Positions 26,216 to 41,058 of a DNA stretch of 64,000 nucleotides are shown piece by piece (within the stretch, counting starts at the first letter, position 1; each line of letters begins with the position of its first letter). The stretch is taken from positions 434,001 through 498,000 of the forward strand of contig NZ_AP019749.1 of the NCBI RefSeq assembly GCF_006740045.1, in the 5' to 3' direction. A program made the position numbers and the translations under genes. The DNA is from Comamonas terrigena NBRC 13299 (GTDB taxonomy: Bacteria; Pseudomonadota; Gammaproteobacteria; Burkholderiales; Burkholderiaceae_C). Under the pieces are notes generated by a model that saw nothing but the letters and a program-made list of their open reading frames with translations, did not search any database and was not told where the DNA came from.

Positions 26216-27076
26216 TTACTTCTGGCCCTTGACGTGCTCTTCCAGCTCCACAAAGCCGGGTCGTTCGGTCGAGAACAGCACCTTGCGGCCGAATTCAATG
26301 GCCGTGGGCGGGTTGTAGCCTTGCATGCTGGCGATCAGCGTGCACTTCACGCATTCCAGCTCCTTGGAGCCGTCCTGGAAAATCTGTTCGATCACGCCGG
26401 CCAGCGGTTCCACCAGCGCATAGGCCAGCAAGATACCGAGGAAGGTCCCCACCAGGGCGGAAGCGATCATGCCGCCCAGCACGGACGGGGGCTGGCCCAC
26501 GGAGCCCATGGTGTTCACCACTCCCAGCACGGCGGCCACGATACCGAAGGCAGGCAGCGCACCCGCCAGGCGTTGCAAGGCTGCAACAGGGCGGTGGTTT
26601 TCCTGGTGGTGGGCCTCGATCTCGTTCTCCATCAGCGTCTCAATTTCGTGCGAATTGAGGTTGCCAGAGACCATCATCCGCAGGTAGTCGGTGATGAACT
26701 CCACCAGGTGGTGGTCGGCCAGGATGTCGGGGTACTTCTGGAACAGCGGCGATTCGTTGGGCTCTTCCACGTCGGATTCGATGGCCATCAGGCCTTCCTT
26801 GCGGGCCTTCTGCAGCAGGTCATACAGCAGGGCCAGCAGGCTCATGAACCGGGCCTTGGTGTACTTGGAGCCTTTGATGGCCAGCGGAATGGCGGCAGCC
26901 GTGGCCTTCAGCACCTTGGGCTGATTGCTCACGATGAAGGCGCCAAACGCCCCGCCACCAATGGTGGCCATTTCAAAAGGCAGCGCCTTGGCCAGCACGG
27001 ACATATTGCCACCGTGCAGGGCGTAGACACCGAAGATGCAGCCGAAGGCCACGAGGTAACCGATGAGGACAAGCAT
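26216..27076 (-). CDS. motA: Flagellar stator protein MotA
   Basis: 286 residues with four membrane helices and a large cytosolic loop between the second and third. Typical features are the opening LIGYLVAFGCIFGVYALHGG, the charged loop around residues 60-160, and LPAFGIVAAVLGVVNTMGSV in the third helix, which carries the conserved proline. MotA and MotB form the proton-driven stator. The gene is first in its operon. No purine-rich Shine-Dalgarno is evident before its ATG. Confidence 0.96.
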   Translation of the reverse strand: MLVLIGYLVAFGCIFGVYALHGGNMSVLAKALPFEMATIGGGAFGAFIVSNQPKVLKATAAAIPLAIKGSKYTKARFMSLLALLYDLLQKARKEGLMAIESDVEEPNESPLFQKYPDILADHHLVEFITDYLRMMVSGNLNSHEIETLMENEIEAHHQENHRPVAALQRLAGALPAFGIVAAVLGVVNTMGSVGQPPSVLGGMIASALVGTFLGILLAYALVEPLAGVIEQIFQDGSKELECVKCTLIASMQGYNPPTAIEFGRKVLFSTERPGFVELEEHVKGQK

Positions 27077-27236
27077 GGGGAGGATTCTGTCAGTCAGCAG
27101 GCCGAGCTAAGGGGGAAGAAGCGGCGGAAAAATGCGCATCTTCGGCGCTTGGGGAGGATCTTATCGAGGGAGACTTGGCTAGGCTAGAAGTGTATTCTGG
27201 TCAACAGATATTTCGATTTCTTTCATCACTTGCTAT

Positions 27237-28895
27237 ATGACAACGCTTGACCAAGCTGTGGTTGCTTCCGAGCCGGCGCCGGCCCTCTCCCATGTGCTGC
27301 ATGACATCAATGTCAGGCTGATCGGGCAGAACAAGTTCCTGCCGGCGCTGACCGAGCTCATGTGCCTGGCCAAGGACCATGTGATGAGTGCCCACCTGTG
27401 GGTAGCAATCGGTGTGGTTTATGTGCGGATGTCGAATTGGTCGGCTGCCATCGGGGCGCTGGAAACGGCGATTGCGCTGGATGAACGGGTGCCGGGCGCC
27501 CACCAGTTGCTGGCGCTGGCGGTGTTCAGCATTGGCCGGCGGGAGCAAGCCTGTCAGATGGTGGATGAGGCGTGCAAGCGCTCTTCCGAAAACAACGCGT
27601 GGCTGCTGCGCGCTTATATCCACTCCCATTCCTCCCGCAGTCCGGAGGTGGCACTGAAGGTGGCCCAGGATTGGGGGCGCCGCTTTGCCGATCCGCTTAC
27701 ACGCAAGGCCAAGCCCCTGGTGGTGCGGGATCGCAGTCCCCGGAAAAAGCTGAAGATCGGTTACGTCACTGCCGACTTCCGGGAGCATTCGGTAGCGTTT
27801 TTCATGCAGCCCGTACTGAAGTTTCATAACCATGAGGAGTATGAGATCCATGTGTACTCCAACGGGCCCTGGGACCACTTCACGCCGCAACTGCGAATGC
27901 ATGTCCGGTATTGGGAAGACGTGATGGCGCTTTCCGACAAGGAGCTCCATCAAAAAATCCGGGATGATGAAATCGATGTGCTGGTCGATTTGTCAGGCTT
28001 TACACATGGGCACAGGTTGGGAGTGTTCGCGCAGAGAGCGGCTCCTGTCCAGGTGACATGGGTGGGCTATATCCAGCCATTGGGCATGAAGGCGATGGAC
28101 TACCGCCTAGTGGCATCTGGTTTGGTACCCCCTTCCCTGGCTCCGTACTACTCGGAAACACTGTTTCAGCTGCAGGCGTCGGCCTGCTACGAGCCTCCCT
28201 CCTACTCGCCCTTGTGCGAAGTCCCGCCGATGGTGCGCAATGGCTATCCGACGCTGGTATCGCCCAACAGTTCGGCCAAGATCACCGACCAGATGTTGCG
28301 GCTGTGGGCCCGCATTCTCCATGAGCGCACGGATGCGCGGCTCATCATCATGGTCAAGGAGGGGGATGCCGATGCCGCCCAGGCCGATATGCAGCCGCGT
28401 GTGGAAGCGGCGGGATTTCCGCTGGACCGGGTATCGGTGATGCACCAACAGCCACTGCACCATTTCATGGAAGTGGGGCATATTGCCGACATCATGCTGG
28501 ATACGGCTCCCATATCCGGCGGTACGACCACCTTGCATTCCTTGTGGATGGGGATGCCTGTCGTTACCCTGGACGCTGAACGGGGGGTGGACGCCTGCAG
28601 TGCCTATGTGCTGCGTGAGTTGGGGCTGGAGGCGGAGATTGCACAGACCGAAGAGGAGTATGTGCAGATTGCCATGCGTTTGATGGCTGACCCGGAGCGG
28701 TTGTACGTACAGCGTGAAAACATTCGCGCACATATGGGCTCCAGCATTTTCATGGACTACGCCGCTTATGCGGCCGACGTGGAGAAAAGCTTCCGCATCA
28801 TGTGGCTCAACTGGTTGCGCGGAGACAAGCGCGATTTGAGCCTGGATGTGGACGTCGACGCCGAGATGGCCCTTGCCGAAGGACGTGCCCCATGA
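27237..28895 (+). CDS. TPR / O-GlcNAc-transferase-like (GT41-type) glycosyltransferase
   Basis: 552 residues. Residues ~10-160 are helical TPR-like repeats (SAAIGALETAIALDERVPGA). The rest is a GT41-like GT-B catalytic region with KIGYVTADFREHSVAFFMQP, DVLVDLSGFTHGHRLGVF, APVQVTWVGY, NSSAKITDQMLRLWARIL (the lysine expected to contact the nucleotide) and a C-terminal DTAPISGGTTTLHSLWMGMP. These match the SPINDLY/OGT group. TPR-GT fusions of this kind, such as Caulobacter FlmG, glycosylate flagellin. Being next to three flagellins, it most likely transfers a sugar to flagellin Ser/Thr. It is divergent from motA and overlaps the next gene region. Enzyme class is secure; substrate is inferred. 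Confidence 0.85.
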   Translation: MTTLDQAVVASEPAPALSHVLHDINVRLIGQNKFLPALTELMCLAKDHVMSAHLWVAIGVVYVRMSNWSAAIGALETAIALDERVPGAHQLLALAVFSIGRREQACQMVDEACKRSSENNAWLLRAYIHSHSSRSPEVALKVAQDWGRRFADPLTRKAKPLVVRDRSPRKKLKIGYVTADFREHSVAFFMQPVLKFHNHEEYEIHVYSNGPWDHFTPQLRMHVRYWEDVMALSDKELHQKIRDDEIDVLVDLSGFTHGHRLGVFAQRAAPVQVTWVGYIQPLGMKAMDYRLVASGLVPPSLAPYYSETLFQLQASACYEPPSYSPLCEVPPMVRNGYPTLVSPNSSAKITDQMLRLWARILHERTDARLIIMVKEGDADAAQADMQPRVEAAGFPLDRVSVMHQQPLHHFMEVGHIADIMLDTAPISGGTTTLHSLWMGMPVVTLDAERGVDACSAYVLRELGLEAEIAQTEEEYVQIAMRLMADPERLYVQRENIRAHMGSSIFMDYAAYAADVEKSFRIMWLNWLRGDKRDLSLDVDVDAEMALAEGRAP

Positions 28896-28927
28896 CTGCG
28901 GCGCATGCCGTTCCCACAGGAGTAGAT

Positions 28928-30118
28928 ATGCCTGAGCCAATTCCTCTGCTGGTGCCTTGTGTGCCCGCACCGCATGAGCTTCTTCCTTGGCTGGAGCGCA
29001 TGCATGCTGCGCGCCATTACTCCAATTTCGGGCCATTGGTGTGCGAGCTGGAAGCGACATTTGCAACGCAATTTCAAGTCGCGGGCGCACAGGTCACCAC
29101 AGTCGCCAATGCCACCCTGGGGTTGGAGCTGGTGCTGCAGGCCCTGGATCTTCCTGCAGGGTCGCGGATTTTGCTGCCGTCCTTCACTTTTGTCGCAACG
29201 GCCACCGCCGTGCTGCGTGCAGGCCATGTCCCTGTGTTGGCCGATGTGGATGCAGACAGCTGGATGCTGACCCCTGATATTGCCAGTGCCGCCCATGCCT
29301 CCATGCCGGTCGCTGCGGTGGTGCCTGTGGCGACCTTTGGCATGCCGCATGACATGCAGGCATGGCAGCAGTTTGAAGCGCAGACCGGTTTGCCCGTGGT
29401 GATCGACGCCGCTGCTGCCTACGGAAGCCAGTGGTTGCACAACGGAGAGGGTACGCTGGTTTTCAGCCTCCACACCACGAAAAGCATGCCGGCGATCGAA
29501 GGCGGCCTGGTGGTTTCCTCCCGACCTGGGCTTACGACCAAGGTGCGGCAGCTTTCCAATTTCGGTATCAACCTGGAGCCGACGGCAGGGGTGCCTGTCG
29601 GCACATTGGCCGGCGCAGGAACCAATGCCAAGATGAGCGAGTACCATGCTGCGGTAGGCTTGGCTTCGCTGCAGCAGTGGGAGCGCCATGCGCAGGATCG
29701 CAAGGCGCTCCAGGCCGATTTAATGCAATTCCTGAACCAGTGCAGCGGTCACAACCTGCAGTGGCAGGGCGATGGTACGGGTGGGCCGCTGAAGGCGCCC
29801 ACATTGTTGTGCCCGCGGCTGCCCAGCGCACACATTCGCAGCCAACTGGAGCAGATCTGCGCACAGGAAAAAATCACCGTGCGCCGGTGGTACCAGCCTT
29901 TGCTGGAGCATATGCCGGCACTGCATTCGCGTTGTCTGGCACTGCCGACGCCCGTGGCCCACCAACTGGCCGATACCTTGCTGGGATTGCCCTTCTTCTT
30001 AGGGATGACGGCAGCACAGCGTGAACGCGTGGGCAATGCCGTGGCCCGTGTGCAGTGGTCGCGGCCTGCAGGGCGCCTGACGGCATGCGTTGCCCACCCC
30101 GTACCGTTGGCCGCGTGA
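28928..30118 (+). CDS. DegT/DnrJ/EryC1/StrS family sugar aminotransferase
   Basis: 396 residues from the ATG at 28928, chosen because AGGAG stands five bases before it. An earlier ATG at 28892 overlaps the stop of the preceding gene as ATGA and could also be used. The fold-type I pattern is complete: ILLPSFTFVATATAVLRAGH, cofactor aspartate D160 in VVIDAAAAYGSQW, and lysine K185 in FSLHTTKSMPAIEGG. This family makes amino sugars from keto-sugar nucleotides. It probably supplies an amino sugar for the modification attached by its neighbour. The stop lies three bases from the end of a converging methyltransferase gene. Confidence 0.87.
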   Translation: MPEPIPLLVPCVPAPHELLPWLERMHAARHYSNFGPLVCELEATFATQFQVAGAQVTTVANATLGLELVLQALDLPAGSRILLPSFTFVATATAVLRAGHVPVLADVDADSWMLTPDIASAAHASMPVAAVVPVATFGMPHDMQAWQQFEAQTGLPVVIDAAAAYGSQWLHNGEGTLVFSLHTTKSMPAIEGGLVVSSRPGLTTKVRQLSNFGINLEPTAGVPVGTLAGAGTNAKMSEYHAAVGLASLQQWERHAQDRKALQADLMQFLNQCSGHNLQWQGDGTGGPLKAPTLLCPRLPSAHIRSQLEQICAQEKITVRRWYQPLLEHMPALHSRCLALPTPVAHQLADTLLGLPFFLGMTAAQRERVGNAVARVQWSRPAGRLTACVAHPVPLAA

Positions 30119-30121
30119 TGC

Positions 30122-30877
30122 CTAGCGGCTGCCGCGCTCGCACACCAGCATGATGCTGGAACAGAGATCGGGGTACTGCTGGCCAAGCTGGTAGCAGCCT
30201 TCCAGGTATTCCTTGGAAATAATGTCGGTTTGCAACAGGCGGTCCCACTGGAAGTTGGCCAGAGCCTTGAAGAAGATGCCCGACCGATGGACGACACGCA
30301 GTCCGGCGCGAGAGGCGTCGCGCTCCAGCGTATCCAGCGCGTAGGTAATCCGGTGGCCGTGCTCGGCTTCGGCCGGGGTCACTGCCGCATTGTGCGAGAT
30401 CAGCCCCATCTTGACGGCAATCTGGCGCGAGGGCGCATTGGCATTGGGGCAGACCAGGAAAAACCGCCCTGTTTCACTGAGCCATTCATGGTTCACCCGC
30501 TGCAAGACCTGGACCGGATCATCGAGGTGTTCCAGTACATGGGTCATCACGATATTGTCGTACTGGCGTGGCAGGTCGATATTTTCAAACATGCCCTCGA
30601 ATTGCTGGATCCGATTTCCCAGACGCTCTTGGGCAATCGCAATTGCATCGGAGGATGCCTCCACGCAGGTCACATCCTCAAAATGCTGCAGCAGGCGCTC
30701 GGTAAATTGCCCCTGGTAGCTACCGAGTTCAAGGAGATTGCCCTTCTTGAAATAGGGCGAGAAAGCCTTGATCATGTAAGGGTGCATGACATCAAAGTCA
30801 AAGCTGTACGCATATTTCTCATGCGTCGCATTGTTCTTGTCATTCAACTCACGGTTGTAATCGCGCACATTCGTCAT
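30122..30877 (-). CDS. Class I SAM-dependent methyltransferase
   Basis: 251 residues from the ATG at 30877 with GGAGA upstream; a TTG six bases earlier is less likely. Motif I is LLELGSYQGQFTERLL, the acidic residue is in VTCVEASSD, and MTHVLEHLDDP with FFLVCPNANAP are typical of Methyltransf_11/23-type enzymes acting on small molecules or sugars. It is last in the seven-gene minus-strand island operon, starting two bases after the stop of the propeller gene. The methyl acceptor is unknown, but a sugar of the flagellin glycan is a sensible guess. Confidence 0.82.
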   Translation of the reverse strand: MTNVRDYNRELNDKNNATHEKYAYSFDFDVMHPYMIKAFSPYFKKGNLLELGSYQGQFTERLLQHFEDVTCVEASSDAIAIAQERLGNRIQQFEGMFENIDLPRQYDNIVMTHVLEHLDDPVQVLQRVNHEWLSETGRFFLVCPNANAPSRQIAVKMGLISHNAAVTPAEAEHGHRITYALDTLERDASRAGLRVVHRSGIFFKALANFQWDRLLQTDIISKEYLEGCYQLGQQYPDLCSSIMLVCERGSR

Positions 30878-30879
30878 TT

Positions 30880-31836
30880 TCAATTCTCCAGTACAGCCAG
30901 GCCAAATCCTCGACGGCCAAATTCATTGCCGTTGTAGATGAGGTATATTTTCCCATCGCATTCGAAAAGATGTGGGTAGCACTGCATTTCTGAATCCCAG
31001 CCTTCGTCGGAAAGATCAATGCCAGCATTGGCATCGTCACGCACCCAGTGGATCAGATCCAAGGAGTACGCGTAACCCAGGCGATAGCCGCGGCCGCTCT
31101 CCTTGCGAAAGCCATGGGCTTCGCGGTAACAGAAATACATATGGTATTTCCCCGCATGAAATATCACGGTGGGCAGCGCCTGGCATTCATTTTCATCCAA
31201 CTTGGATTCAATGATGTGTTTTCCGTCTCGGTTCCAATGCAGTCCGTCGGGTGAGGTGGCCTGCGCTATTTTGTAGACGCGTTCATGTTGGCCGCTGTCA
31301 GCAAACTTCAGCCATTTCGTGCCATAGATGTACCACATGTAGAAGGTATCACCGTAGCGCTGCACAAAGGCATCTGCGACCAGAAACGGCTCATGCAGTG
31401 TCGCTGCAACAATGGGGCCGCCCAGCCCAATGCGCGAAAAAGTCTGCCCCTCATCATGGCTGATGGCTAATCCGATGGCCGCGTCGACAGGAACGGATGA
31501 TTTACGGTTGCATCCCGTGGTGTAGGCAAGAACACGGTCTCCATCCTTTAATACATTGAATGGAAAAATACCATGCTCATCGAAGCACCCCAACTTCCCC
31601 AGTGGGATGACGGTATGCTGTGAGGTGCCAATAATATCCTTCATGTCCCGAGAGAAATCCACATATGCCACATGGCTGAGGTATTTTCCCGATGCATCCT
31701 TCTCCCTGGTGGAATAATAAATGCGGACCCTGTCCTGCAGAACAAGAGATTGCGGAGCCTGCGAAAATTCAACGCAGTTGTTGGGTATTTGATGCTCGAC
31801 GGGATCAAATATTTTCCCTAGTTTTTTCCAGCGCAT
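30880..31836 (-). CDS. Five-bladed beta-propeller, glycoside-hydrolase-like protein (copy 1)
   Basis: 318 residues. Repeated blade-like strands such as SHVAYVDFS, AIGLAISHDEGQTF, KIAQATSPDGLHW and RLGYAYSLDLIHW fit the GH43/GH32/GH130-like five-bladed propeller fold. Acidic motifs shared with the next gene are CFDEHGIFPF, DENECQALP and EGWDSEM. There is no signal peptide, so it should act in the cytosol on a nucleotide sugar or glycan precursor, or serve as a binding protein. It is a tandem paralogue of the upstream gene, three bases away. Catalytic activity cannot be judged from sequence. Confidence 0.7.
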   Translation of the reverse strand: MRWKKLGKIFDPVEHQIPNNCVEFSQAPQSLVLQDRVRIYYSTREKDASGKYLSHVAYVDFSRDMKDIIGTSQHTVIPLGKLGCFDEHGIFPFNVLKDGDRVLAYTTGCNRKSSVPVDAAIGLAISHDEGQTFSRIGLGGPIVAATLHEPFLVADAFVQRYGDTFYMWYIYGTKWLKFADSGQHERVYKIAQATSPDGLHWNRDGKHIIESKLDENECQALPTVIFHAGKYHMYFCYREAHGFRKESGRGYRLGYAYSLDLIHWVRDDANAGIDLSDEGWDSEMQCYPHLFECDGKIYLIYNGNEFGRRGFGLAVLEN

Positions 31837-31838
31837 GC

Positions 31839-32810
31839 TTAACTCCAGATGCTTTGTTTGTCGAGAACGGCCAATCCAAAGCCTGAGCGCCCCATGCCAT
31901 TGCCTTGGTACAGCATGTAGATGGACCCATCCAGTTCGAACACATGGGGATAGTTGATCATTTCAGAATCCCAGCCTTCGTTGGATAGCGGGATATCGAT
32001 CAGATCGTCATTCCGTGTCCAGGTTTCCATATCTGGCGACGAGGCATAACCTATGCGATAGCCGCCTTCACGGGATGTGTAGTTGTAGATGTCGCGATAG
32101 GAGAAAAACATGTGGTATTTGCCATCGCGGTATATCACATCAGGGCATGCCTGACATTCATGCTCCCCCAGTTTATTGGGGATGAGGTCCCGGCCCACCT
32201 TGTTCCATTGAATACCGTCAGTGGATGTGGCCATGCGTATCTTATAAATAGGCTCTTTTTTGCTGTTTTCTGTGATTCGCCATTCTTTACCGGCGACATA
32301 CCATAACTGCCATTGCCCCTCGAAGCGGCGAATACGTGGGCTGCCCAATAAAAAAGGCTCGTCCGGTGTGTAGGGGAGGACTGGGCCTTCGCCGAGGCGG
32401 TGAAAGCTGTCGCCGCCATCCTGGCTGACGGCCAGGCCAATGGTGGCATTGAACGGGACGGACTCGCAACGCGAAATCCCAGCGTAGTAAGCGCGTATTT
32501 CGTTTTGGTGGGAAATGACGGAAACCGGGTAAGTGCCGTGCTCGTCAAAGGTCCCTACCTTGCCCAGTTCCAGTACGGGGGTTGCACTGATCTTGAGAAT
32601 GTTCAGAAGATTTTTTCTGTCCAAATCAAGATAGGCGATGTGGCTTTGGTATTTCCCGTCGGCACTGGGTGCGGGGCGTGTGCAAAAGAATACCCGGACC
32701 GTATGCGGATTGATTATGGTAGCTGGAGATTGTGCAAACTCGTGCATCCAAGCCGGAGATGCCATGCATTGCGGATCAAATATCCTGCCTAGTTTCTTCC
32801 AGTGAAACAT
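31839..32810 (-). CDS. Five-bladed beta-propeller, glycoside-hydrolase-like protein (copy 2)
   Basis: 323 residues, paralogous to the downstream gene along its whole length. Shared blocks include the opening KKLGRIFDP, SHIAYLDLD, TFDEHGTYPV, EHECQACPDVIY, KYHMFFSYRD and EGWDSEMINYPHVFELDG. Blades are marked by repeats such as ATSTDGIQWN and YASSPDMETW. No signal peptide is visible. Tandem duplication followed by divergence suggests related but different substrates. Composition is AT-richer than the flagellar genes around it. Confidence 0.7.
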   Translation of the reverse strand: MFHWKKLGRIFDPQCMASPAWMHEFAQSPATIINPHTVRVFFCTRPAPSADGKYQSHIAYLDLDRKNLLNILKISATPVLELGKVGTFDEHGTYPVSVISHQNEIRAYYAGISRCESVPFNATIGLAVSQDGGDSFHRLGEGPVLPYTPDEPFLLGSPRIRRFEGQWQLWYVAGKEWRITENSKKEPIYKIRMATSTDGIQWNKVGRDLIPNKLGEHECQACPDVIYRDGKYHMFFSYRDIYNYTSREGGYRIGYASSPDMETWTRNDDLIDIPLSNEGWDSEMINYPHVFELDGSIYMLYQGNGMGRSGFGLAVLDKQSIWS

Positions 32811-32847
32811 ATTTCAATATTCTCTCTGATTGTGTGAATGGCGGAAA

Positions 32848-33543
32848 TCAGGATAGTCGGTGGTACTTCAGCATGGCACTGACATCTTGAACAGGGTTGA
32901 ACATCAGTACGTCGACGATACTCAGCCAAGGCACAAAATCGTGATGGTTCTGAGGGTAAGGATGCAGTTCAGATTGGATGAACTTCAATTGTATTCCGCG
33001 GGCTTCGAATGCATCCCGGGAATACAATTCCACGCCTCCAATGGGATTGATATAGGTGGTGGCGTGGGTGGCTTGGCACATCGCCAAGACCCTGTCCTGT
33101 GATTTCAGGTCGTGATCAATAGGCAGAGCCGATGAATCCTGTATGCGTGTCGGAATTCCTATATGCTTGCATACGGCCGTGATGGAGTTTTTCAAGAAAT
33201 AAAAAAGATTGCTGGAGTCATACAAAAGAATATCTTGAATGAGTGCAATGGTTTCTTGAAAATAAGGTGCTTTGCCATAAGCTCCTATGAACTGATTGAG
33301 CAGCTTCTTCCTGTCGAAGCTCTCAGATAATTCACGATGCACAATGTCCAGTGCATCGGAGTCTTTGCGCAAAGGCAAGGAGAAGGTGGCGGCCTCTCCA
33401 TTGGAGAGCAGTCGGTTTCTATTGATCCAGCCTTTTTTGGTGTATTTGATGTTGTCGTAGACAATAAACTCATCCACGGCCGCGATGAGCTGAAAATATC
33501 CAATATATGGAAGAAAGTACGGCTGCATGATTCCCAGTGTCAT
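32848..33543 (-). CDS. WbqC-like family protein
   Basis: About 231 residues from an ATG at 33543, where the family's conserved N-terminus begins (GIMQPYFLPYIGYFQLI). An ATG at 33600 would add nineteen residues and cannot be excluded. Other family marks are DEFIVYDNIKYTKKGWINRN and INPIGGVELY. WbqC-like proteins occur in O-antigen and other glycan clusters; their biochemical role is not established. It lies between a methyltransferase and the propeller pair in the island operon. Family call is good, function unknown. Confidence 0.82.
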   Translation of the reverse strand: MTLGIMQPYFLPYIGYFQLIAAVDEFIVYDNIKYTKKGWINRNRLLSNGEAATFSLPLRKDSDALDIVHRELSESFDRKKLLNQFIGAYGKAPYFQETIALIQDILLYDSSNLFYFLKNSITAVCKHIGIPTRIQDSSALPIDHDLKSQDRVLAMCQATHATTYINPIGGVELYSRDAFEARGIQLKFIQSELHPYPQNHHDFVPWLSIVDVLMFNPVQDVSAMLKYHRLS

Positions 33544-33634
33544 GCCGCCCACATGCTGGAGATAGGGCATGCCAGGGCGAGAAGAGGCGCTGTCAGGCAT
33601 TCAGGTGCACCCTATGGCTATGGAAGTCATAGAA

Positions 33635-34333
33635 CTATTTTTCTTGCAGTACATAAACGCCAAGCCAGGAAGCCGTGACCCCGCATCGTCCTCTGGAAAA
33701 GCGCCACATGCCATCCAGTGCTGCAACGGTGCAACGGGTGAGAAAGGACATGAGCCCTGTTTTCTTATAGAAGGAGCGCCAGTATCGAGGACGGTATGGA
33801 TCTTTGAAGAAATAAATATCTTCTAACTGCAGGAGCTTGATTTCCTGGTAAGAATTGGGCATGCCTGTTGCACCAAATGCGTGGCGAAAACTCTGCGGGA
33901 GATACGGGCGGATATGGGTGAAGTCATGATAAAACCTCTCGCCGTGGGTGGGGCTGAGGACAATGAGCTTCCCGTGGGGCGATAATTTTTGGCAAAGCTT
34001 GGGAATGAGCCCATGCAGTTCATCTGGCGAGAGGTGCTCTATCAGGTGGCTGAGGAATATGATGTCGTACGGTGGAGTGTCGGTGCTGAAAAAGTATTCA
34101 GGGTCGTAGGCCGATTGACCTTTTTGCACGGCACGTTGAATATATTCAGGATTGATATCGACGCCGCTTGCATCCATGCCAAGGCTGCAAAACAGATCCA
34201 GAAATTTCCCTGTGCCACATCCGTAGTCCAGGATGCGCAATGTGGCGGATCCTTGCTTCTTGAAATCGTGCATCAACTGGGTGACGCGTGCGAATTCAAG
34301 GCTCTGATAGTGGGCCGGCGTGCGGAGGTTCAT
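33635..34333 (-). CDS. Class I SAM-dependent methyltransferase
   Basis: 232 residues. Motif I is RILDYGCGTGKFLDLFCSLG, motif II includes the acidic GVDINPEYIQ, and IIFLSHLIEHLSPDEL is followed by GKLIVLSPTHGERFYHDF. This is the common Methyltransf_23 type seen in polysaccharide clusters. Its start overlaps the end of the upstream gene by four bases (ATGA). The C-terminus is rich in Arg and aromatic residues. Acceptor unknown. Confidence 0.83.
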   Translation of the reverse strand: MNLRTPAHYQSLEFARVTQLMHDFKKQGSATLRILDYGCGTGKFLDLFCSLGMDASGVDINPEYIQRAVQKGQSAYDPEYFFSTDTPPYDIIFLSHLIEHLSPDELHGLIPKLCQKLSPHGKLIVLSPTHGERFYHDFTHIRPYLPQSFRHAFGATGMPNSYQEIKLLQLEDIYFFKDPYRPRYWRSFYKKTGLMSFLTRCTVAALDGMWRFSRGRCGVTASWLGVYVLQEK

Positions 34334-35103
34334 CGTGTGCTGCCTGGAACCAGCTGCTTGATCAGCAAACCGTGGCCGTTGAGGTTGTGGACGAAAAATG
34401 CATCCCGCTGATTCCGGGCAATGGAATTCACAAAATCCGTAATGCCCTCACAGCCGAAGAAGCCATAATCATCAAATACCACCACACCGCCAGGCTGGAC
34501 TCTTGGCCAAATGACATCAAATGCCTCACTGGCGGAGCCGCGCGTGTCCACATCGATGTGAGCGAGGCTGATTTCTTTGGGGAGTTGATCGAATGTGTGG
34601 TCCGGGAATATGCCAGGATAAATGTCGCACTCCAGTTGCATGCTGCTGAACAGCGATTCGACCAAATTCTGGTGCGTATCAGAATGCTCGTTGCCGGTGT
34701 AAAGCGTGTCGTGCTGCGTGTCTGATTTGGCGACACCGGTAAATGTGTCGAAAAGCGCGATGCGCTTTTGCGCGCCAGCCGCCAGCAAGGCGCCTGTACC
34801 TCCCCGCCATACACCGATTTCCACCAGATCGCCAGGGATGTGAGCGCATTGCCTTGCCAGTGTGTACAGCTCGTGGCAACGGTAAATGTCCACCATGGTG
34901 TGGCCCTTCACACGCTCGTGCAAGGCTGAAAAAACGGAATCATCCAGCCATGGTGAATAGCTGGCATATGGGATGACTTGGGTATGTGTCAACCCTGCTT
35001 TCAGTGAAGAAAATTTGGTTTTTCTCAGGCGATCCAGTACATCTTTGCGTTCCTGACGCAGAACGGCAAGAAACTCTTCAGGACGGGTAAAAAGCTCAGA
35101 CAT
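34330..35103 (-). CDS. TylF/MycF-like O-methyltransferase
   Basis: 257 residues. DLVEIGVWRGGTGALLAAGA is motif I of the TylF/macrocin O-methyltransferase family. IALFDTFTGVAKSD, AHIDVDTRGSASEAFDVIWP and GGVVVFDDYGFFGCEGITDF are its further marks; the aspartates bind a metal in characterised members. Such enzymes methylate hydroxyls of deoxysugars. This supports a methylated sugar as the product of the locus. It overlaps the next gene by four bases and follows the ATP-grasp/HAD gene by eight. Confidence 0.82.
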   Translation of the reverse strand: MSELFTRPEEFLAVLRQERKDVLDRLRKTKFSSLKAGLTHTQVIPYASYSPWLDDSVFSALHERVKGHTMVDIYRCHELYTLARQCAHIPGDLVEIGVWRGGTGALLAAGAQKRIALFDTFTGVAKSDTQHDTLYTGNEHSDTHQNLVESLFSSMQLECDIYPGIFPDHTFDQLPKEISLAHIDVDTRGSASEAFDVIWPRVQPGGVVVFDDYGFFGCEGITDFVNSIARNQRDAFFVHNLNGHGLLIKQLVPGSTR

Positions 35104-35111
35104 AGGATCAA

Positions 35112-36386
35112 TTAATTGATGAAAAATTCCAGTGCATCCACATCCAGAACGGGGATTGCCTGCTTCTTGGCGACGTCAAGCCGCTCCAGGAAGGCGTTGT
35201 CGATGAAAATGGAATGCGGCTCGATGAAGTCTGCTTTGGATTCTTCATTCTGGAGATGAATGATTTTCTTGAACAGACTGGGCGGAATATGTGTGCGCTG
35301 CAGCGTCGTTTCCACATCGCCTGCGTGGCGGGTGATGAGGAAAATCTCTTTTCCCTTGGCGTGTTCTTGATACACAAAGGCCATGGCACGCGGAACGGCG
35401 GCACCATCAATGATCAAGGTGTCATCGAGATCGATGAAGATCTTGTCGTAATGGAATTCCAAACGGGCCTTGGTGGTGATATTGCGATCGATCACTTGGA
35501 CAAAGCGGTGATCGAGCGTCTGCAATCTGCGGCCCATGAAGTCCTGTACCGCCATCAAAGGCAGGTTGACACCCCGGGCACGGGCTGCGGCCGTGGTGCT
35601 GGCAACGCGGCAGGAGACTTCCAGCAACTTCCAGTGTCCTGACAGATCCTTTTTGACTTGAAAGAACCAGGGGCCGCGCATGGACAGCCGTGCGTTGATG
35701 CCGTGGGCAATCTCACGCAGTTCTGCACTGGCCTCCAGTAGCTCGGAGCGCATGGTGATGCCGGCTCGCACACGCTCTCGGGTGCGTGGCCCGATCCAGA
35801 TCAGTTCCTTGGTGAAGCTGGTGAAGCAGTCGACAGAAAGTTCTTGCCCCGGGAGATATTCCACCAGCAAAGGGTCTTCGATCCTCGCCATTGCGGCCTG
35901 GGCCTCGGAGGCCGTGTGGGCAATGCTGAAGCCTTGTCCACCTTGCCCGCAATCGGGCTTGATGGCCGCGGGCCAATGTGCTACATCGGCGGGGTCGGCG
36001 TAGACCGAGGGGGTGGCTGGCAGGTCTGCGAGGGCCTGGTAGGTCAGGCTCTTGCGGCGGGTGACACGGCTGGTATCCGGATCGCCGTTGACCAGGTGAA
36101 AACCCATGGTCGCGGCACGCTCCGACAAATAGGTGTGCACGGTGTCATGGGTGGCAAATACCAGATCTATTTGGAGATCTGAGAGCAGCTGGCTCCAGGC
36201 CGCATCAAATGCTGGGTCTGCAATATTGGGGAGATCGCCAAAATAGTTGGCGAATAGAAATCGTCCATGGTCGTCAATACTGGATGCGCCATATAAATCG
36301 ACGTGGAGCGAGTAACGAAGCGCTTGGTGTATTTCAGATGCACCCTCTGAGCCACAAGGAAAAACAAGTACACGGATTTTTTTCAT
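35112..36386 (-). CDS. ATP-grasp / HAD fusion protein
   Basis: 424 residues and two domains. The first ~300 are a CarB-like ATP-grasp ligase: VTRRKSLTYQALADL, PAAIKPDCGQGGQGFS as nucleotide loop, DPLLVEYLPGQELSVDCFTS, and GPWFFQVKKDLSGHWKLLEV with the metal-site residues. From about 310 a HAD-like domain starts with IFIDLDDTLIIDGAAVP (Asp nucleophile in DxDDT), then IFLITRHAGD and SIFIDNAFLERLDVA. ATP-grasp enzymes join a carboxylate to an amine, while HADs usually remove phosphate. A plausible job is attaching an amino acid or other acid to an amino sugar. It is first in the island operon. Domains are clear; reaction is inference. Confidence 0.82.
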   Translation of the reverse strand: MKKIRVLVFPCGSEGASEIHQALRYSLHVDLYGASSIDDHGRFLFANYFGDLPNIADPAFDAAWSQLLSDLQIDLVFATHDTVHTYLSERAATMGFHLVNGDPDTSRVTRRKSLTYQALADLPATPSVYADPADVAHWPAAIKPDCGQGGQGFSIAHTASEAQAAMARIEDPLLVEYLPGQELSVDCFTSFTKELIWIGPRTRERVRAGITMRSELLEASAELREIAHGINARLSMRGPWFFQVKKDLSGHWKLLEVSCRVASTTAAARARGVNLPLMAVQDFMGRRLQTLDHRFVQVIDRNITTKARLEFHYDKIFIDLDDTLIIDGAAVPRAMAFVYQEHAKGKEIFLITRHAGDVETTLQRTHIPPSLFKKIIHLQNEESKADFIEPHSIFIDNAFLERLDVAKKQAIPVLDVDALEFFIN

Positions 36387-36446
36387 GGTTCAGAGTGCAT
36401 CCATTTGCATCCCATGAGATTCAACTTCCAATGGTTTGGGCACTGG

Positions 36447-36492
36447 TAAAAATAAACCGCAATGCCCAGCAATCACGCTGAGAACATTGCGG
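36447..36492 (-). terminator. Intrinsic terminator of fliC1
   Basis: On the minus strand CCGCAATG (36492-36485) pairs with CATTGCGG (36464-36457), with an inner CAGC/GCTG pair, and is followed by TTTATTTTT. It lies 38 bases past the fliC1 stop and separates flagellin transcription from the island operon that starts at 36386. Confidence 0.85.
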
Positions 36493-36529
36493 CCTAGGCA
36501 TTCAATCTCAGAGAAGGATTGCTTGCTTT

Positions 36530-37792
36530 TTATTTTTGCAGCAATTGCAGAACGTTCTGCGGGATCTGGTTGGCTTGCGACACCATGGCAGTGCCCGCTT
36601 GCTGCAGGATCTGGGTGCGGCTCAGATTGGCTGTTTCCTTGGCGAAGTCGGCATCCATGATACGGCCGCGGGCAGCGGACAGATTTTCGACCTGGATGTC
36701 GATGTTGTTCACTGCGTTTTCGAAGCGGGTCTGCACCGCACCCAGGGTAGCGCGTGCGCCATTGACCTGATCGACGGCGCTGTCGATCTTCTTCAGGGCC
36801 ACCCAGGCGCCGGCTTGGGTGGTGACATCGATTTGCTCAATGCCCTTGTCGTTGATGACCGACGTTGCCGCGGCCGTGCCGCCTGCCATGTCGAAGTCTG
36901 CCTTGACGATGCCTGTCGCTGCGGCAGAGAAATTCGCAGACAGAGTGACTGCCACGGGTTCGCCGTTGGAGTCCAGCTTGCCGGACATCAATTCCACCTT
37001 GTAGGTTTCCGTGCCCTCGATCTTGGTCAGGTAGGCGGTCACGCCGGTGTCGGCCGTCTTGTTGTTGATGGCCGTCACCACCTGGCCCAGGCGCTCTTGC
37101 GGATTCTGGGCGGCCTTGATCGTTTCCAGGGTGACGGTGGTCGCATTCGGAGCAGTTCCCACCGTGATGGAGGCGAAGTCTGCAGCGCTCGCGGTGGCAG
37201 GGTTTGCCGGGATGGAGGTGCTGATGTCGGTGATGGAGGCCAGATCCACGACCGAGTTCGTGGCGGCGTAAGACGTGGTGGACAGCTGCGAAGCGCGGGT
37301 GTCTGCCAGTGCGCCCAGGGTCACGTTGTCACCGGAGTTGGCGCCCACTTGGAACACGGCGCCTGCAAACGAGCCGTCCAGAATCTTCTGGCCGTTGAAG
37401 TTGGTCTGCTTGGCCACACGGTCAATTTCAGCCGACAGCTGGCTGACTTCGGCCTGCAGGGCCTTGCGGTCGCTGTCGCTGTTGGTGGCGTTGGAGGCTT
37501 GCACGGCCAGCTCACGCATGCGCTGCAGCATATCGCCCACCTTGCCCAGCGCACCTTCTGCCGTCTGTGCCAGCGAGATGCCGTCGTTGGCATTGCGCGA
37601 GGCCACGCTCAGGCCGCGGACCTGGGTGTTCATGCGTTCGGCGATGGCCAGACCGGCGGCATCGTCCTTGGCGCTGTTGACACGCAGGCCTGAGGACAGA
37701 CGTTGCATGGTGGTGTTCAGCGAGCTACCCGAGAGGGTCAGGTTTCGCTGCGCATTGATCGAAGCAATATTGGTGTTGATAGTTGCGGCCAT
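36530..37792 (-). CDS. fliC: Flagellin (copy 1, divergent)
   Basis: 420 residues. N-terminal [20 protein letters not shown] and C-terminal [20 protein letters not shown] then MVSQANQIPQNVLQLLQ are the D0 helices of flagellin, and [20 protein letters not shown] is in D1. The central region (about 170-320), Ala/Thr/Ser-rich, differs strongly from the two other copies. It is transcribed opposite to them. AGAGGAA precedes the ATG. No sigma-28 site is evident upstream. It may be a minor or alternative filament subunit. Confidence 0.96.
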   Translation of the reverse strand: MAATINTNIASINAQRNLTLSGSSLNTTMQRLSSGLRVNSAKDDAAGLAIAERMNTQVRGLSVASRNANDGISLAQTAEGALGKVGDMLQRMRELAVQASNATNSDSDRKALQAEVSQLSAEIDRVAKQTNFNGQKILDGSFAGAVFQVGANSGDNVTLGALADTRASQLSTTSYAATNSVVDLASITDISTSIPANPATASAADFASITVGTAPNATTVTLETIKAAQNPQERLGQVVTAINNKTADTGVTAYLTKIEGTETYKVELMSGKLDSNGEPVAVTLSANFSAAATGIVKADFDMAGGTAAATSVINDKGIEQIDVTTQAGAWVALKKIDSAVDQVNGARATLGAVQTRFENAVNNIDIQVENLSAARGRIMDADFAKETANLSRTQILQQAGTAMVSQANQIPQNVLQLLQK

Positions 37793-38178
37793 TGCTGTTC
37801 CTCTAGTGAAAGGGCGGGTTGCATCGCATCGCTACTGAAACCGTGGGCACAAATAAGCGACAGGCAACGCTAGCGATGGGGGAATTCTTCTATGGAGGGC
37901 GGCTCGGTATAGCGGGAATAAACGCAGCAATCACCGCGCTTCTCGGTCTTTCGTGGCGGAGGCGGGGCAGAAGAGGGGGCGGGGGCTCTAGAGGGAGCAA
38001 AGCGGCCTTCGCAGGCGGATGCGAAAAAAAGCTAAAGAAATTTCCAGGGGGCCCGATAACAGTTTTGTACGGAGCAAGCACGCAGCCTCAAGGGGGTGCA
38101 AAGGTCCACAGAGACAACCGCAAGCACCGGCAAAAGCAAACGTTCATCAACTATCGCCTGGATAAAAGGAATCGCATC
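37793..38178. other. Divergent fliC1-fliC2 intergenic region
   Basis: 386 bases without a convincing gene. It holds the fliC2 sigma-28 promoter, a GCGGGAATAAACGC string (37912-37925) like those before other flagellar operons, and the ribosome-binding site AAAGGA of fliC2. The fliC2 5' leader is about 115 bases long. An in-frame extension of fliC2 into this region exists but has no flagellin similarity. Confidence 0.6.
38033..38059 (+). promoter_or_regulatory. Sigma-28 promoter of fliC2
   Basis: TAAAGAAA (38033-38040), an 11-base spacer and CCCGATAA (38052-38059) agree with TAAAGTTT-N11-GCCGATAA at 13 of 16 positions. It lies 119 bases before the fliC2 ATG. Confidence 0.85.
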
Positions 38179-39408
38179 ATGGCCATGACCATCAACACCA
38201 ACACCGTTTCGATCAACGCCCAACGCAACCTGGGCCTGTCCGGCAGCTCGCTCGGCACCGCCATGCAACGTCTGTCCTCGGGCCTGCGTGTCAACAGCGC
38301 CAAGGACGATGCCGCCGGTCTGGCCATTTCCCAGCGTATGAGCACCCAGGTGCGTGGCCTGACCGTGGCTGCCCGCAATGCCAACGACGGCATCTCGCTG
38401 GCCCAGACGGCTGAAGGTGCACTGGGCAAGGTGGGTGACATGCTGCAACGGATGCGCGACCTGGCTGTGCAGTCCAGCAACGCGACCAACAGCAAGAGCG
38501 ACCGCGAAGCCCTGCAGGCCGAGCTGAGCCAACTGCGTGACGAAGTGGATCGCGTGGCCAAGACCACGACCTTCAACGGCGCCAAGCTGCTGGACGGCAG
38601 CTTCACCGGCGGCGTGTTCCAGGTGGGGGCCAATTCCGGCGACAACATCACCGTGGGTGCCCTGAGCAACACCAAGGTGACCGAGCTGGGCAATTCGGTG
38701 TACGGCTCCGGCTCCACCACTGCAGCGACCGCAGAGGCTCTGCAAACCACCTTGGCGGGTAACGGTACGGTTGCTGCCGCAGACGTGACGATTGGTATCC
38801 GAGGTGCCGATTCGACCACGGTGCACACAATCACCATCAAGGCCGATGCCAACATGACCAAGGAGCAGGCGCTGGGCAAGACGATCGAGGCGATCAACTC
38901 CAAGACGGCTGACACCGGCGTGACGGCTTTCCTGGAAGAGGATGCTGCTGGTGTCATGCAGATCCAGATCCGTGCGACCGCGGAACAGGCTGGTAATGCC
39001 ACGGGCGTTGCCATCACCTACAGCACGGGGACCAATGTGACCGGTACCGGTGCGAACTTGGTGGCCGCTGCAAGCGTGACCGATGCAGGCGACAAGGGTA
39101 TCGACCAGCTGGACATCAGCACCCAGTCGGGCTCTTGGGAAGCGCTGCAGCGTATCGACGGTGCCATCGACTCCGTGAGTTCCGCCCGGGCCGGTCTGGG
39201 TGCCATCCAGACCCGCTTTGAGAAGTCGATCGAGAACATCGAGTCGATGAACGAAAACCTGACAGCTGCCCGTGGTCGCATCATCGATGCCGACTTCGCC
39301 AGCGAAACCGCTGCCCTGAGCCGCGCTCAGATCCTGCAGCAAGCGGGTACCGCCATGGTGTCCCAGGCCAACCAGCTGCCCCAGCAAGTGCTGAGCCTGC
39401 TGAAGTAA
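38179..39408 (+). CDS. fliC: Flagellin (copy 2)
   Basis: 409 residues from the ATG at 38179, where [20 protein letters not shown] begins; AAAGGA stands upstream. The D0/D1 ends are canonical, with [20 protein letters not shown] near the C-terminus. The central part (about 175-320) is Thr/Ala/Gly-rich and offers many Ser/Thr sites for O-glycosylation. It is nearly identical to copy 3 over the first 165 codons and the same length. A sigma-28 promoter precedes it, so it is probably a major filament protein. Confidence 0.97.
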
Positions 39409-39416
39409 GAGGCACC

Positions 39417-39453
39417 GTACCCAGGGACACGCGAACCGCGGAACTCTGGGTAC
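39417..39453 (+). repeat. Hairpin between fliC2 and fliC3
   Basis: GTACCCAG (39417-39424) pairs with CTGGGTAC (39446-39453), and inside it CGCG-AAC-CGCG forms a second stem. No T-run follows, so full termination is doubtful. It may stabilise the fliC2 message or reduce read-through into fliC3. Confidence 0.6.
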
Positions 39454-39631
39454 AGCGTTTGAATGAATAACCCCGTGCCCTGCACTCCCCTCTCTCGCAG
39501 GGCATGGATCCGGAATTACGGGCAGACCAACTGCCTGAAAACAAGGTGTCAATCGTTCTTGGGCTTGAGCAAGTGAGACCGTTTGGCGCTATCCATCACT
39601 GTGTGAGCGTTAGAAAAGAAGGGGAAATCAA

Positions 39632-40861
39632 ATGGCAATGACCATTAACACCAATGTTGTGTCCATCAATGCACAACGTAACCTGGGTCTGTCGGGCAAT
39701 TCGCTGTCGACCTCCATGCAACGCCTGTCCTCGGGTCTGCGTGTGAACAGTGCCAAGGACGATGCCGCTGGTCTGGCCATCTCCGAACGCATGAGCACCC
39801 AGGTTCGTGGCCTGACCGTGGCTGCCCGCAATGCCAACGATGGCATCTCGCTGGCCCAAACCGCAGAAGGTGCGCTGGGCAAGGTGGGCGACATGCTGCA
39901 GCGTATGCGTGACCTGGCTGTTCAGTCCAGCAACGCCACCAACAGCAAGAGCGACCGCGAAGCCCTGCAGGCCGAGCTGAGCCAGCTGCGTGACGAAGTG
40001 GACCGTGTGGCCAAGACCACGACCTTCAACGGCGCCAAGCTGTTGGACGGCAGCTTCACCGGCGGCGTGTTCCAGGTGGGTGCCAACTCCGGCGACAACA
40101 TCACCGTGGGTGCCCTGAACAACACCAAGGTGACCGAGCTGGGCAATTCCATCTACGGTTCCGGTGCGACGGCCGCTACGGCGACCGATGCCCTGCAGAC
40201 CATCCTGGCTGGTGGCGGCACTGTGGCTGCTGCAGACGTGACCATCGGTATCCGTGGCGCCAATTCGACCGCCGTGCAGACTGTCACGATCAAGGCCGAT
40301 GCCAACATGACCAAGGAACAGGCTCTGGGCAAGGCGATCGAAGCGATCAACTCCAAGACTGCTGACACCGGCGTGACGGCTTTCCTGGAGGAAGATGCCG
40401 CTGGCGTGAAGCAGATCCAACTGCGTGCGACCGAAGACACCTCGGGAACCGCTACGGCCGTGGCAGTCACCTACAGCTCGGGCACCAACACGACCGGTAC
40501 GGGCAACAACCTGGTGGCCGCTGGTACCCTGACGGAAGCCGGCGACAAGGGCATCGACCAGATCGACATCAGCACCCAGTCGGGTTCTTGGGAAGCCATG
40601 CAGCGTCTGGACAAGGCCATTGACAGCGTGAGCTCTGCACGTGGCCAGCTGGGCGCCCTGCAGACCCGCTTCGAGAAGGCTGTCGAAAACATCGACATCC
40701 AGAACGAAAACGTGACGGCTGCCCGTGGTCGCATCATCGATGCCGACTTCGCTTCCGAAACTGCCAACCTGAGCCGCGCTCAGATCCTGCAACAAGCCGG
40801 TACCGCCATGGTGGCCCAGGCCAACCAGCTGCCGCAGAACGTGCTGAGCCTGCTGCGTTAA
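39632..40861 (+). CDS. fliC: Flagellin (copy 3)
   Basis: 409 residues, same length as copy 2. [20 protein letters not shown] opens it and [20 protein letters not shown] closes the conserved C-terminal helix. Differences from copy 2 are concentrated in the central domain and last third. AAGAAGGGGAAATCAA provides a ribosome-binding site. No clear sigma-28 site is visible in the 223 bases before it, so it may depend on read-through from fliC2 or on a weaker promoter. A strong terminator follows. Confidence 0.97.
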
Positions 40862-41031: not shown

Positions 41032-41058
41032 TCAACTATCGGAAAAACCGGCCGATAT
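41032..41058 (+). promoter_or_regulatory. Sigma-28-like promoter of fliD
   Basis: TCAACTAT (41032-41039), an 11-base spacer and GCCGATAT (41051-41058). The -10 half matches at seven of eight positions, the -35 half at five of eight. It lies just after the fliC3 terminator and 151 bases before the fliD ATG, as expected for a late operon. Confidence 0.7.

What the first reader, a model, noticed from the sequence alone, without database searches (positions are those of the whole stretch)
27237..36386. Nine-gene modification island next to the flagellins
Between motA and fliC1 lie a TPR/GT41-like transferase, a DegT aminotransferase, three methyltransferases, an ATP-grasp/HAD fusion, a WbqC-like protein and two propeller proteins. 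The region is visibly AT-richer than both flanks, which suggests acquisition by transfer. None of the usual pseudaminic or legionaminic acid synthesis genes is present. I infer a pathway that makes an aminated, methylated and possibly acyl- or aminoacyl-capped sugar and attaches it to flagellin. I do not recall this exact combination as a described system.
Basis: partly seen in the sequence, partly recalled or inferred. Interest (0 to 1): 0.78.

Follow-up and report, generated by a model that had tools for sequence, protein, structure and literature searches.

The report
Swappable flagellin sugar-coating gene island
Nine genes fill a slot beside the flagellin genes that is empty in many sister species and holds different sugar-modifying genes in others, so this bacterium most likely coats its flagella with its own unusual methylated amino sugar.

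Summary
The nine genes are real and fill the motA-fliC interval (insert about 27228-36529). Genes g3-g9 are AT-rich (GC 0.524 against 0.638 outside). The genome has no NeuB but has rmlBDAC, so the dTDP-keto-sugar precursor is available.

In this genus the slot is a hotspot. Of 37 other genomes read, 18 are empty, 10 carry a g1 relative (9 with a g2 relative), 5 another GT41 protein, 4 are unclear. Some of the other payloads are viosamine-island-like.

WbqC, two propellers and methyltransferase g3 form a mobile core in 23 other loci read, 8 of them with flagellar genes nearby. ATP-grasp genes there come with a phosphatase of one of two unrelated families (11 of 11).

The parts
27228..36529 (.). 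island: insert between motA and flagellin relative to empty-slot congeners
   Evidence: window 27001-27227 aligns to L085 1-226 and window 36536 onward to L085 352 onward
27237..28895 (+). g1: TPR/GT41 protein, likely flagellin O-glycosyltransferase (module A)
   Evidence: PF13844 150 bits; best solved relatives 5djs and SPINDLY 8dtf; relatives 56-62% in the same slot of 10 congeners
28892..30118 (+). g2: DegT sugar aminotransferase, likely C4 amination (module A)
   Evidence: PF01041 200.5 bits; best NCBIfam model DesI 139.4 bits, far below its cut-off 650; relatives 64-70% in 9 congeners
30122..30883 (-). g3: methyltransferase, most conserved member of the mobile core (module C); TTG start, ATG six bases further in
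   Evidence: PF13489 60.3 bits; 66-74% in L032-L038
30880..31836 (-). g4: five-bladed propeller, GH32/43/130-like (module C)
   Evidence: PF00251 22.2 bits, cut-off 22.1; paralogue of g5 at 46%
31839..32810 (-). g5: five-bladed propeller, GH130-like (module C)
32848..33600 (-). g6: WbqC protein, proposed ligase acting on the sugar amine (module C)
33635..34333 (-). g7: methyltransferase (module B)
   Evidence: PF13489 55.4 bits; a relative (57%) only in L160 among 100 loci read
34330..35103 (-). g8: TylF-type O-methyltransferase (module B)
   Evidence: PF05711 74.9 bits; 56% in L109, 52% in L160
35112..36386 (-). g9: ATP-grasp with C-terminal HAD-like phosphatase (module B)
   Evidence: PF15632 60.8 bits; HAD by motif; fused in the same way in L035, L109, L160
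26216..27076 (-). motA, left border of the slot
   Evidence: flagellar-slot marker; relatives in 41 of 52 other congeners at E <= 1e-100
36530..37792 (-). flagellin 1, right border of the slot and likely substrate
   Evidence: aligns with the flagellin beside empty slots

Best explanation
A flagellin O-glycosylation island made of exchangeable modules in the motA-fliC slot. Module A (g1-g2): transferase and aminotransferase. Module B (g9-g8-g7): ATP-grasp/phosphatase and two methyltransferases. Module C (g6-g5-g4-g3): a mobile core of WbqC, two GH130-like propellers and a methyltransferase. Proposed route, in the cytoplasm: (1) RmlA/RmlB, encoded elsewhere, give dTDP-4-keto-6-deoxyglucose (genes shown, activity inferred). 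(2) g2 aminates C4 (inferred). (3) WbqC joins a carboxylate, perhaps an amino or hydroxy acid, to that amine with ATP (inferred from fold and DegT-WbqC adjacency). (4) The ATP-grasp part makes or extends this amide through a phosphorylated substrate or product, and the HAD part removes the phosphate (inferred from the 11 of 11 coupling). (5) g8, g7 and g3 methylate (inferred from family). (6) The propellers do an unknown sugar-handling step, perhaps as a pair. (7) g1 transfers the residue to Ser/Thr of flagellin (inferred from class and location). The payload sets a species-specific flagellar coat and is exchanged by recombination. The confidence given is for 'island that modifies flagellin with such a sugar', not for each step.
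For: Slot: empty in 18, g1 relative in 10, other GT41 in 5, unclear in 4 of 37 congeners read; exact insert borders. Two overlapping or closely packed operons. g1 is of the OGT/SPINDLY class; the TPR-GT protein FlmG glycosylates flagellins in Caulobacter (PMC7591256, passages). rmlB, rmlD, rmlA and rmlC all exceed a curated cut-off. In a g1-bearing slot (L109) the core-type DegT stands in place of g2, next to WbqC, ATP-grasp/HAD and TylF. DegT lies within 300 bases of WbqC in 20 of 23 core loci. Other payloads in g1-g2 slots carry KAS III, reductase, hexapeptide and Rieske proteins, like the P. syringae viosamine island (passages). Dickeya dadantii: a cluster at fliC with OGT, transaminase, carbamoyl-phosphate-synthase-like protein and methyltransferase; FliC mass 32,170 Da falls to 28,890 and 31,034 Da in two glycosyltransferase mutants (PMC6637903, passages).
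Against: Core loci are more often without than with flagellar genes in the stretch read (15 against 8 of 23), and L048 has an EPS-type regulator beside it. g2 scores far below every curated aminotransferase cut-off and is about 30% identical to the core DegT. g1 divergence follows fliD, so it need not be newly acquired. No sigma28-like site of 10 of 12 or better before g1 or g9. WbqC-BshC has no profile support. Module B rests on two loci, L160 and L109. No role is proposed with evidence for the propellers.
Confidence: 0.78

Rival explanations
1. The payload g3-g9 makes a sugar for lipopolysaccharide or another surface polymer and only happens to lie beside the flagellins; g1-g2 alone serve flagellin, or nothing does.
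For: 15 of 23 core loci show no flagellar gene in the stretch read; L048 has a MarR_EPS regulator (133.7 bits, cut-off 88); the operons g1-g2 and g9-g3 are separate.
Against: Within the genus the slot is flagellar and filled with sugar-modifying genes whenever it is filled and readable (15 of 15); there is no polymerase or flippase among the nine genes; 12 of 20 other order-level g3 loci have flagellar genes in the stretch read.
Confidence: 0.13
2. The cap is a methylated glyceroyl amide: the ATP-grasp part of g9 couples 3-phosphoglycerate to the sugar amine, the HAD part removes the phosphate, and the methyltransferases cap the hydroxyls (a sub-hypothesis of the best explanation).
For: ATP-grasp comes with a phosphatase of one of two unrelated families in 11 of 11 loci; TylF and a second methyltransferase travel with g9 in L160, TylF in L109. 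Di-O-methylglyceroyl groups on Campylobacter flagellin sugars are recalled, from no call.
Against: No substrate evidence. The 11 loci come from about two ancestral arrangements. It leaves WbqC and the propellers without a clear part.
Confidence: 0.12
3. A true viosamine island: the sugar is the 3-hydroxybutyryl-viosamine type known from Pseudomonas and Burkholderia.
For: DegT, methyltransferase and rml genes as in P. syringae (passages); KAS III/reductase payloads sit in the same slot in congeners.
Against: None of the nine genes is a KAS III, ketoreductase, acyl carrier or hexapeptide acyltransferase by Pfam.
Confidence: 0.05

Closest known systems
Dickeya zeae WH1 insertion between fliA and fliC (PMC9650423, one passage seen)
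   Same: Strain-specific insertion at fliC with SAM methyltransferase, 'glycosylase', WbqC and DegT
   Different: Annotation only; seven genes; no ATP-grasp/HAD or TylF named; different border genes; sequences not compared here
Dickeya dadantii 3937 flagellin glycosylation cluster (PMC6637903, passages seen)
   Same: OGT-class transferase, transaminase, carbamoyl-phosphate-synthase-like protein and methyltransferase beside fliC; FliC shown to be modified
   Different: No WbqC or propellers named; has an oxidoreductase and a second sugar transferase
Pseudomonas syringae viosamine island (PMC3927599, passages seen)
   Same: DegT and methyltransferase make a decorated sugar for flagellin; uses dTDP sugars
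   Different: Acyl cap by KAS III/reductase/VioB, absent here; island not at fliC; large VioT transferase
Enterobacterial flagellin glycosylation islands (PMC4875605, passages seen)
   Same: Highly variable islands; DegT-type aminotransferases in 242 of 307 and methylation genes in 235 of 307 island-bearing strains
   Different: No hit for WbqC, glycosylase or glycoside hydrolase in that text
BshC, presumed bacillithiol cysteine ligase
   Different: 11% identity; Foldseek TM-score only 0.34; no profile signal; WbqC half as long; BshC activity itself unproven in vitro according to that 2015 review
GH130 mannoside phosphorylases
   Different: About 16% identity; GH43, GH32 and GH117 match nearly as well; g5 scores 25.4 on PF04041, cut-off 26

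Membership tests
Flagellin glycosylation island | Inserted at the flagellin locus and variable between close relatives | tested here: met
   Insert borders; 18 empty, 15 filled, 4 unclear of 37 congeners
Flagellin glycosylation island | Encodes a glycosyltransferase and sugar-modifying enzymes | tested here: met
   GT41, DegT, three methyltransferases, ATP-grasp
Flagellin glycosylation island | Flagellin carries the glycan | not testable with these tools
   Needs mass spectrometry
TPR-GT41 (OGT-class) transferase | TPR repeats followed by a GT41 domain | tested here: met
   PF13844 150 bits, cut-off 25; TPR matches at 29-145 below their cut-offs; 5djs E 1.5e-75
Viosamine island | KAS III, ketoreductase, acyl carrier and VioB-type acyltransferase | tested here: not met
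   None among the nine proteins by Pfam
Viosamine island | dTDP-4-keto-6-deoxyglucose C4 aminotransferase | tested here: inconclusive
   g2: DesI model best, 139.4 bits against cut-off 650
Nonulosonic acid pathway | NeuB-family synthase | tested here: not met
   0 matches in the genome; control rings in 9 of 14 genomes
WbqC family PF08889 | Profile above its cut-off | tested here: met
   230 bits, cut-off 21.3
BshC | Core fold | tested here: met
BshC | Family profile or profile-profile similarity | tested here: not met
   PF10079 not listed for g6 at E <= 0.01; hhalign score 18.4, controls 13.1-29.4
GH130 | Pfam profile above cut-off | tested here: not met
   g5 25.4 bits against 26; g4 not listed
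GH130 | Catalytic and phosphate-binding residues | not tested
   No residue-level comparison made

The most novel reading that the evidence does not exclude
WbqC, a family without known function, is an ATP-dependent amide ligase with a BshC-type core that couples an amino acid or other carboxylate to the amine made by its DegT partner. With a phosphatase-coupled ATP-grasp enzyme, methyltransferases and a pair of GH130-like propellers it forms a mobile 'amide-cap' cassette that bacteria plug into flagellin slots or polysaccharide loci to change the outermost residue.
Probability: 0.28. Interest if true: 0.72.

Novelty: new variant of a known kind. Interest (0 to 1): 0.52.

Why it matters
Flagellin glycans are known to affect host recognition and virulence (general knowledge; for P. 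syringae and D. dadantii the passages). This slot is a natural series: same locus, related transferase, different decorating genes or none. That lets the link between gene set and flagellar glycan be tested across sister species. It also gives a concrete biochemical hypothesis for WbqC proteins, and shows that in every locus read here this type of ATP-grasp comes with a phosphatase, which narrows its chemistry.

Tried and rejected
Nonulosonic acid pathway: rejected, no NeuB match in the genome.

Recent transfer of g1: not supported. Pairwise g1 identity follows fliD identity (rho 0.68, Mantel p 0.001, 45 pairs of 10 genomes; L108 had no fliD in its stretch); g2 against fliD is weaker (rho 0.24, p 0.035, L109 left out).

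Flagellar promoter for the island: no sigma28-like site of 10 of 12 or better before g1 or g9.

Literature: 'WbqC' alone gave 12 papers, most unrelated by title; with flagellin 1; with glycosyltransferase and aminotransferase 2. 'flagellin' + 'ATP-grasp' + 'glycosylation' + 'aminotransferase' gave 1, not opened. The passages read call WbqC functionally uncharacterized. Only open-licence papers are held, so this is no proof that nothing is in print. The B. cenocepacia flagellin sugar is recalled, from no paper read here.

Limits: neighbourhood counts rest on tblastn with this window's proteins and a few from L032-L036, in stretches of at most 20 kb, some cut by contig ends; 'no flagellar gene' means none found there. 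Loci L040-L046 share only about 80 residues at about 30% with g5 and were left out of the core counts' discussion. In one search matches covering under 60% of the query were dropped. Of 41 other genomes with motA I read 37; four (G314, G324, G325, G336) were left out, most because motA lies near a contig end. Gene calls in relatives are my own simple ORF picking. L032 is labelled a Chloroflexi MAG and may be mis-binned.

Full report
Observation. They form two opposed, tightly packed operons: g1-g2 (+, ATGA overlap) and g9 to g3 (-, gaps of at most 37 bases, two overlaps of 4 bases). GC is 0.524 over g3-g9 against 0.638 outside the insert; none of 169 outside windows of that size is below 0.594. 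g1 and g2 are close to normal, so the AT-rich part is the payload, not the whole island.

A slot, not just an island. motA was found at E <= 1e-100 in 42 of 53 genomes of the genus, own included. I read the motA-fliC side in 37 of the 41 others. In 18 a flagellin begins within 174-517 bases of the start of the stretch read, and these include the two nearest relatives by motA identity (96% and 95%). Ten carry a g1 relative (56-62%), nine of them with a g2 relative (64-70%). Five carry another GT41 protein, two of these with a DegT. Four are rearranged or unclear. Alignment to an empty slot puts the insert at about 27228-36529, its left edge about 10 bases before the g1 start.

Payloads differ. 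Some g1-g2 slots in other species carry 3-oxoacyl-ACP synthase III, a short-chain reductase, hexapeptide/PglD-type transferases, Rieske oxygenases and O- or FkbM-type methyltransferases (clusters; nine representative proteins identified, a tenth gave no match). Enzymes of the first three kinds make the acyl cap of modified viosamine in Pseudomonas syringae (PMC3927599, passages). In the window their place is taken by WbqC, propellers, ATP-grasp/HAD and three methyltransferases. In L109 a g1 relative (60%) stands with the core type of DegT, WbqC, ATP-grasp/HAD (51/53%) and TylF (56%). That suggests g2 and the core DegT can supply the same kind of amino sugar.

A mobile core. WbqC + g5 + g4 + g3 occur together in 23 of 100 other loci read; 22 also hold a DegT (not L038), 20 have it within 300 bases of WbqC, 11 hold a GT41 protein and 8 hold flagellar genes (L033, L035, L036, L047, L154, L155, L158, L162). 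These loci were fetched because they match g5 or g3, or are slots of the genus, so the fractions are not frequencies in nature. Of the 20 other order-level g3 loci, 12 have flagellar genes in the stretch; of the 8 phylum-only loci none has. g3 is 66-74% identical in L032-L038, which include a Bacteroidetes MAG and a planctomycete. In its own genus only this species has it; nine other genomes gave weak partial hits of at most 31%. Frequency: g3 at E <= 1e-60 in 21 of 399 order genomes and 11 of 398 phylum genomes, own included; the g5 propeller at E <= 0.001 in 21 of 299 family genomes, own included. A g7 relative of 35% or more was seen only in L160, with relatives of g9, g8 and g3; none of the 100 loci has the whole set of nine.

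ATP-grasp and phosphatase. Of 101 sequences (100 loci and the window region), 11 hold this type of ATP-grasp, and each of the 11 has a phosphatase beside it: a fused HAD domain in four (window, L035, L109, L160) and a separate calcineurin-like phosphoesterase in seven (L032, L033, L034, L036, L039, L047, L151) (families). In L035 the fusion stands where L032 and L033 have a reductase, ATP-grasp and phosphoesterase. Common descent makes this about two independent arrangements, but they point to the same chemistry.

Mechanism. See Best explanation. Shown: genes, slot, empty sites, co-occurrence of modules, rmlB, rmlD, rmlA and rmlC in the genome, each above a curated cut-off, and no NeuB. Inferred: every catalytic step and the target. 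Nearest experimental support: the Dickeya dadantii cluster at fliC, in which two glycosyltransferase mutants lower the FliC mass from 32,170 to 28,890 and 31,034 Da (PMC6637903, passages). The TPR-GT protein FlmG binds and modifies flagellins in Caulobacter (PMC7591256, passages).

Against. The core is not flagellin-specific. g2 scores far below the curated aminotransferase cut-offs. g1 divergence tracks fliD (rho 0.68), so the transferase module may be old and often lost. No good sigma28-like site lies before either operon. A similar gene list was printed for Dickeya zeae WH1 (PMC9650423, passage).

Verdict. A flagellin glycosylation island of unusual gene make-up in a recombination slot: a new variant of a known kind. 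The WbqC-BshC lead and the phosphatase-coupled ligase are the parts most worth a specialist's time.

Noticed in passing
36530-40861: Three flagellin genes in mixed orientation (-, +, +); the listed frame of the second starts too early, the likely start is the ATG at 38179. A sigma28-like site (11 of 12) lies at 38033 and one of 10 of 12 at 41032, before fliD.
   Followed up: partly
L094, L108 (motA-fliC slot): Two filled slots hold related fragments and an extra frame that look by eye like insertion-sequence remnants (cluster K14), a hint at how payloads are exchanged.
   Followed up: no
L038:11941-12420: In the planctomycete core a GNAT acetyltransferase (PF00583) sits between g4 and g3; L037 and L048-L051 have a gap of several hundred bases there.
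   Followed up: partly
L087, L094, L096, L098, L101, L108, L118, L119: Rieske oxygenases (clusters K6/K8) recur in the flagellin slots of other species, suggesting an oxidative step on the flagellar sugar there.
   Followed up: partly
L163-L168 (GT41-DegT-propeller-TylF/g3-WbqC beside flagellins): One genus of another family carries a repeated variant of this set directly before its flagellins, with a DegT 41-42% like g2 in five of these six loci.
   Followed up: no
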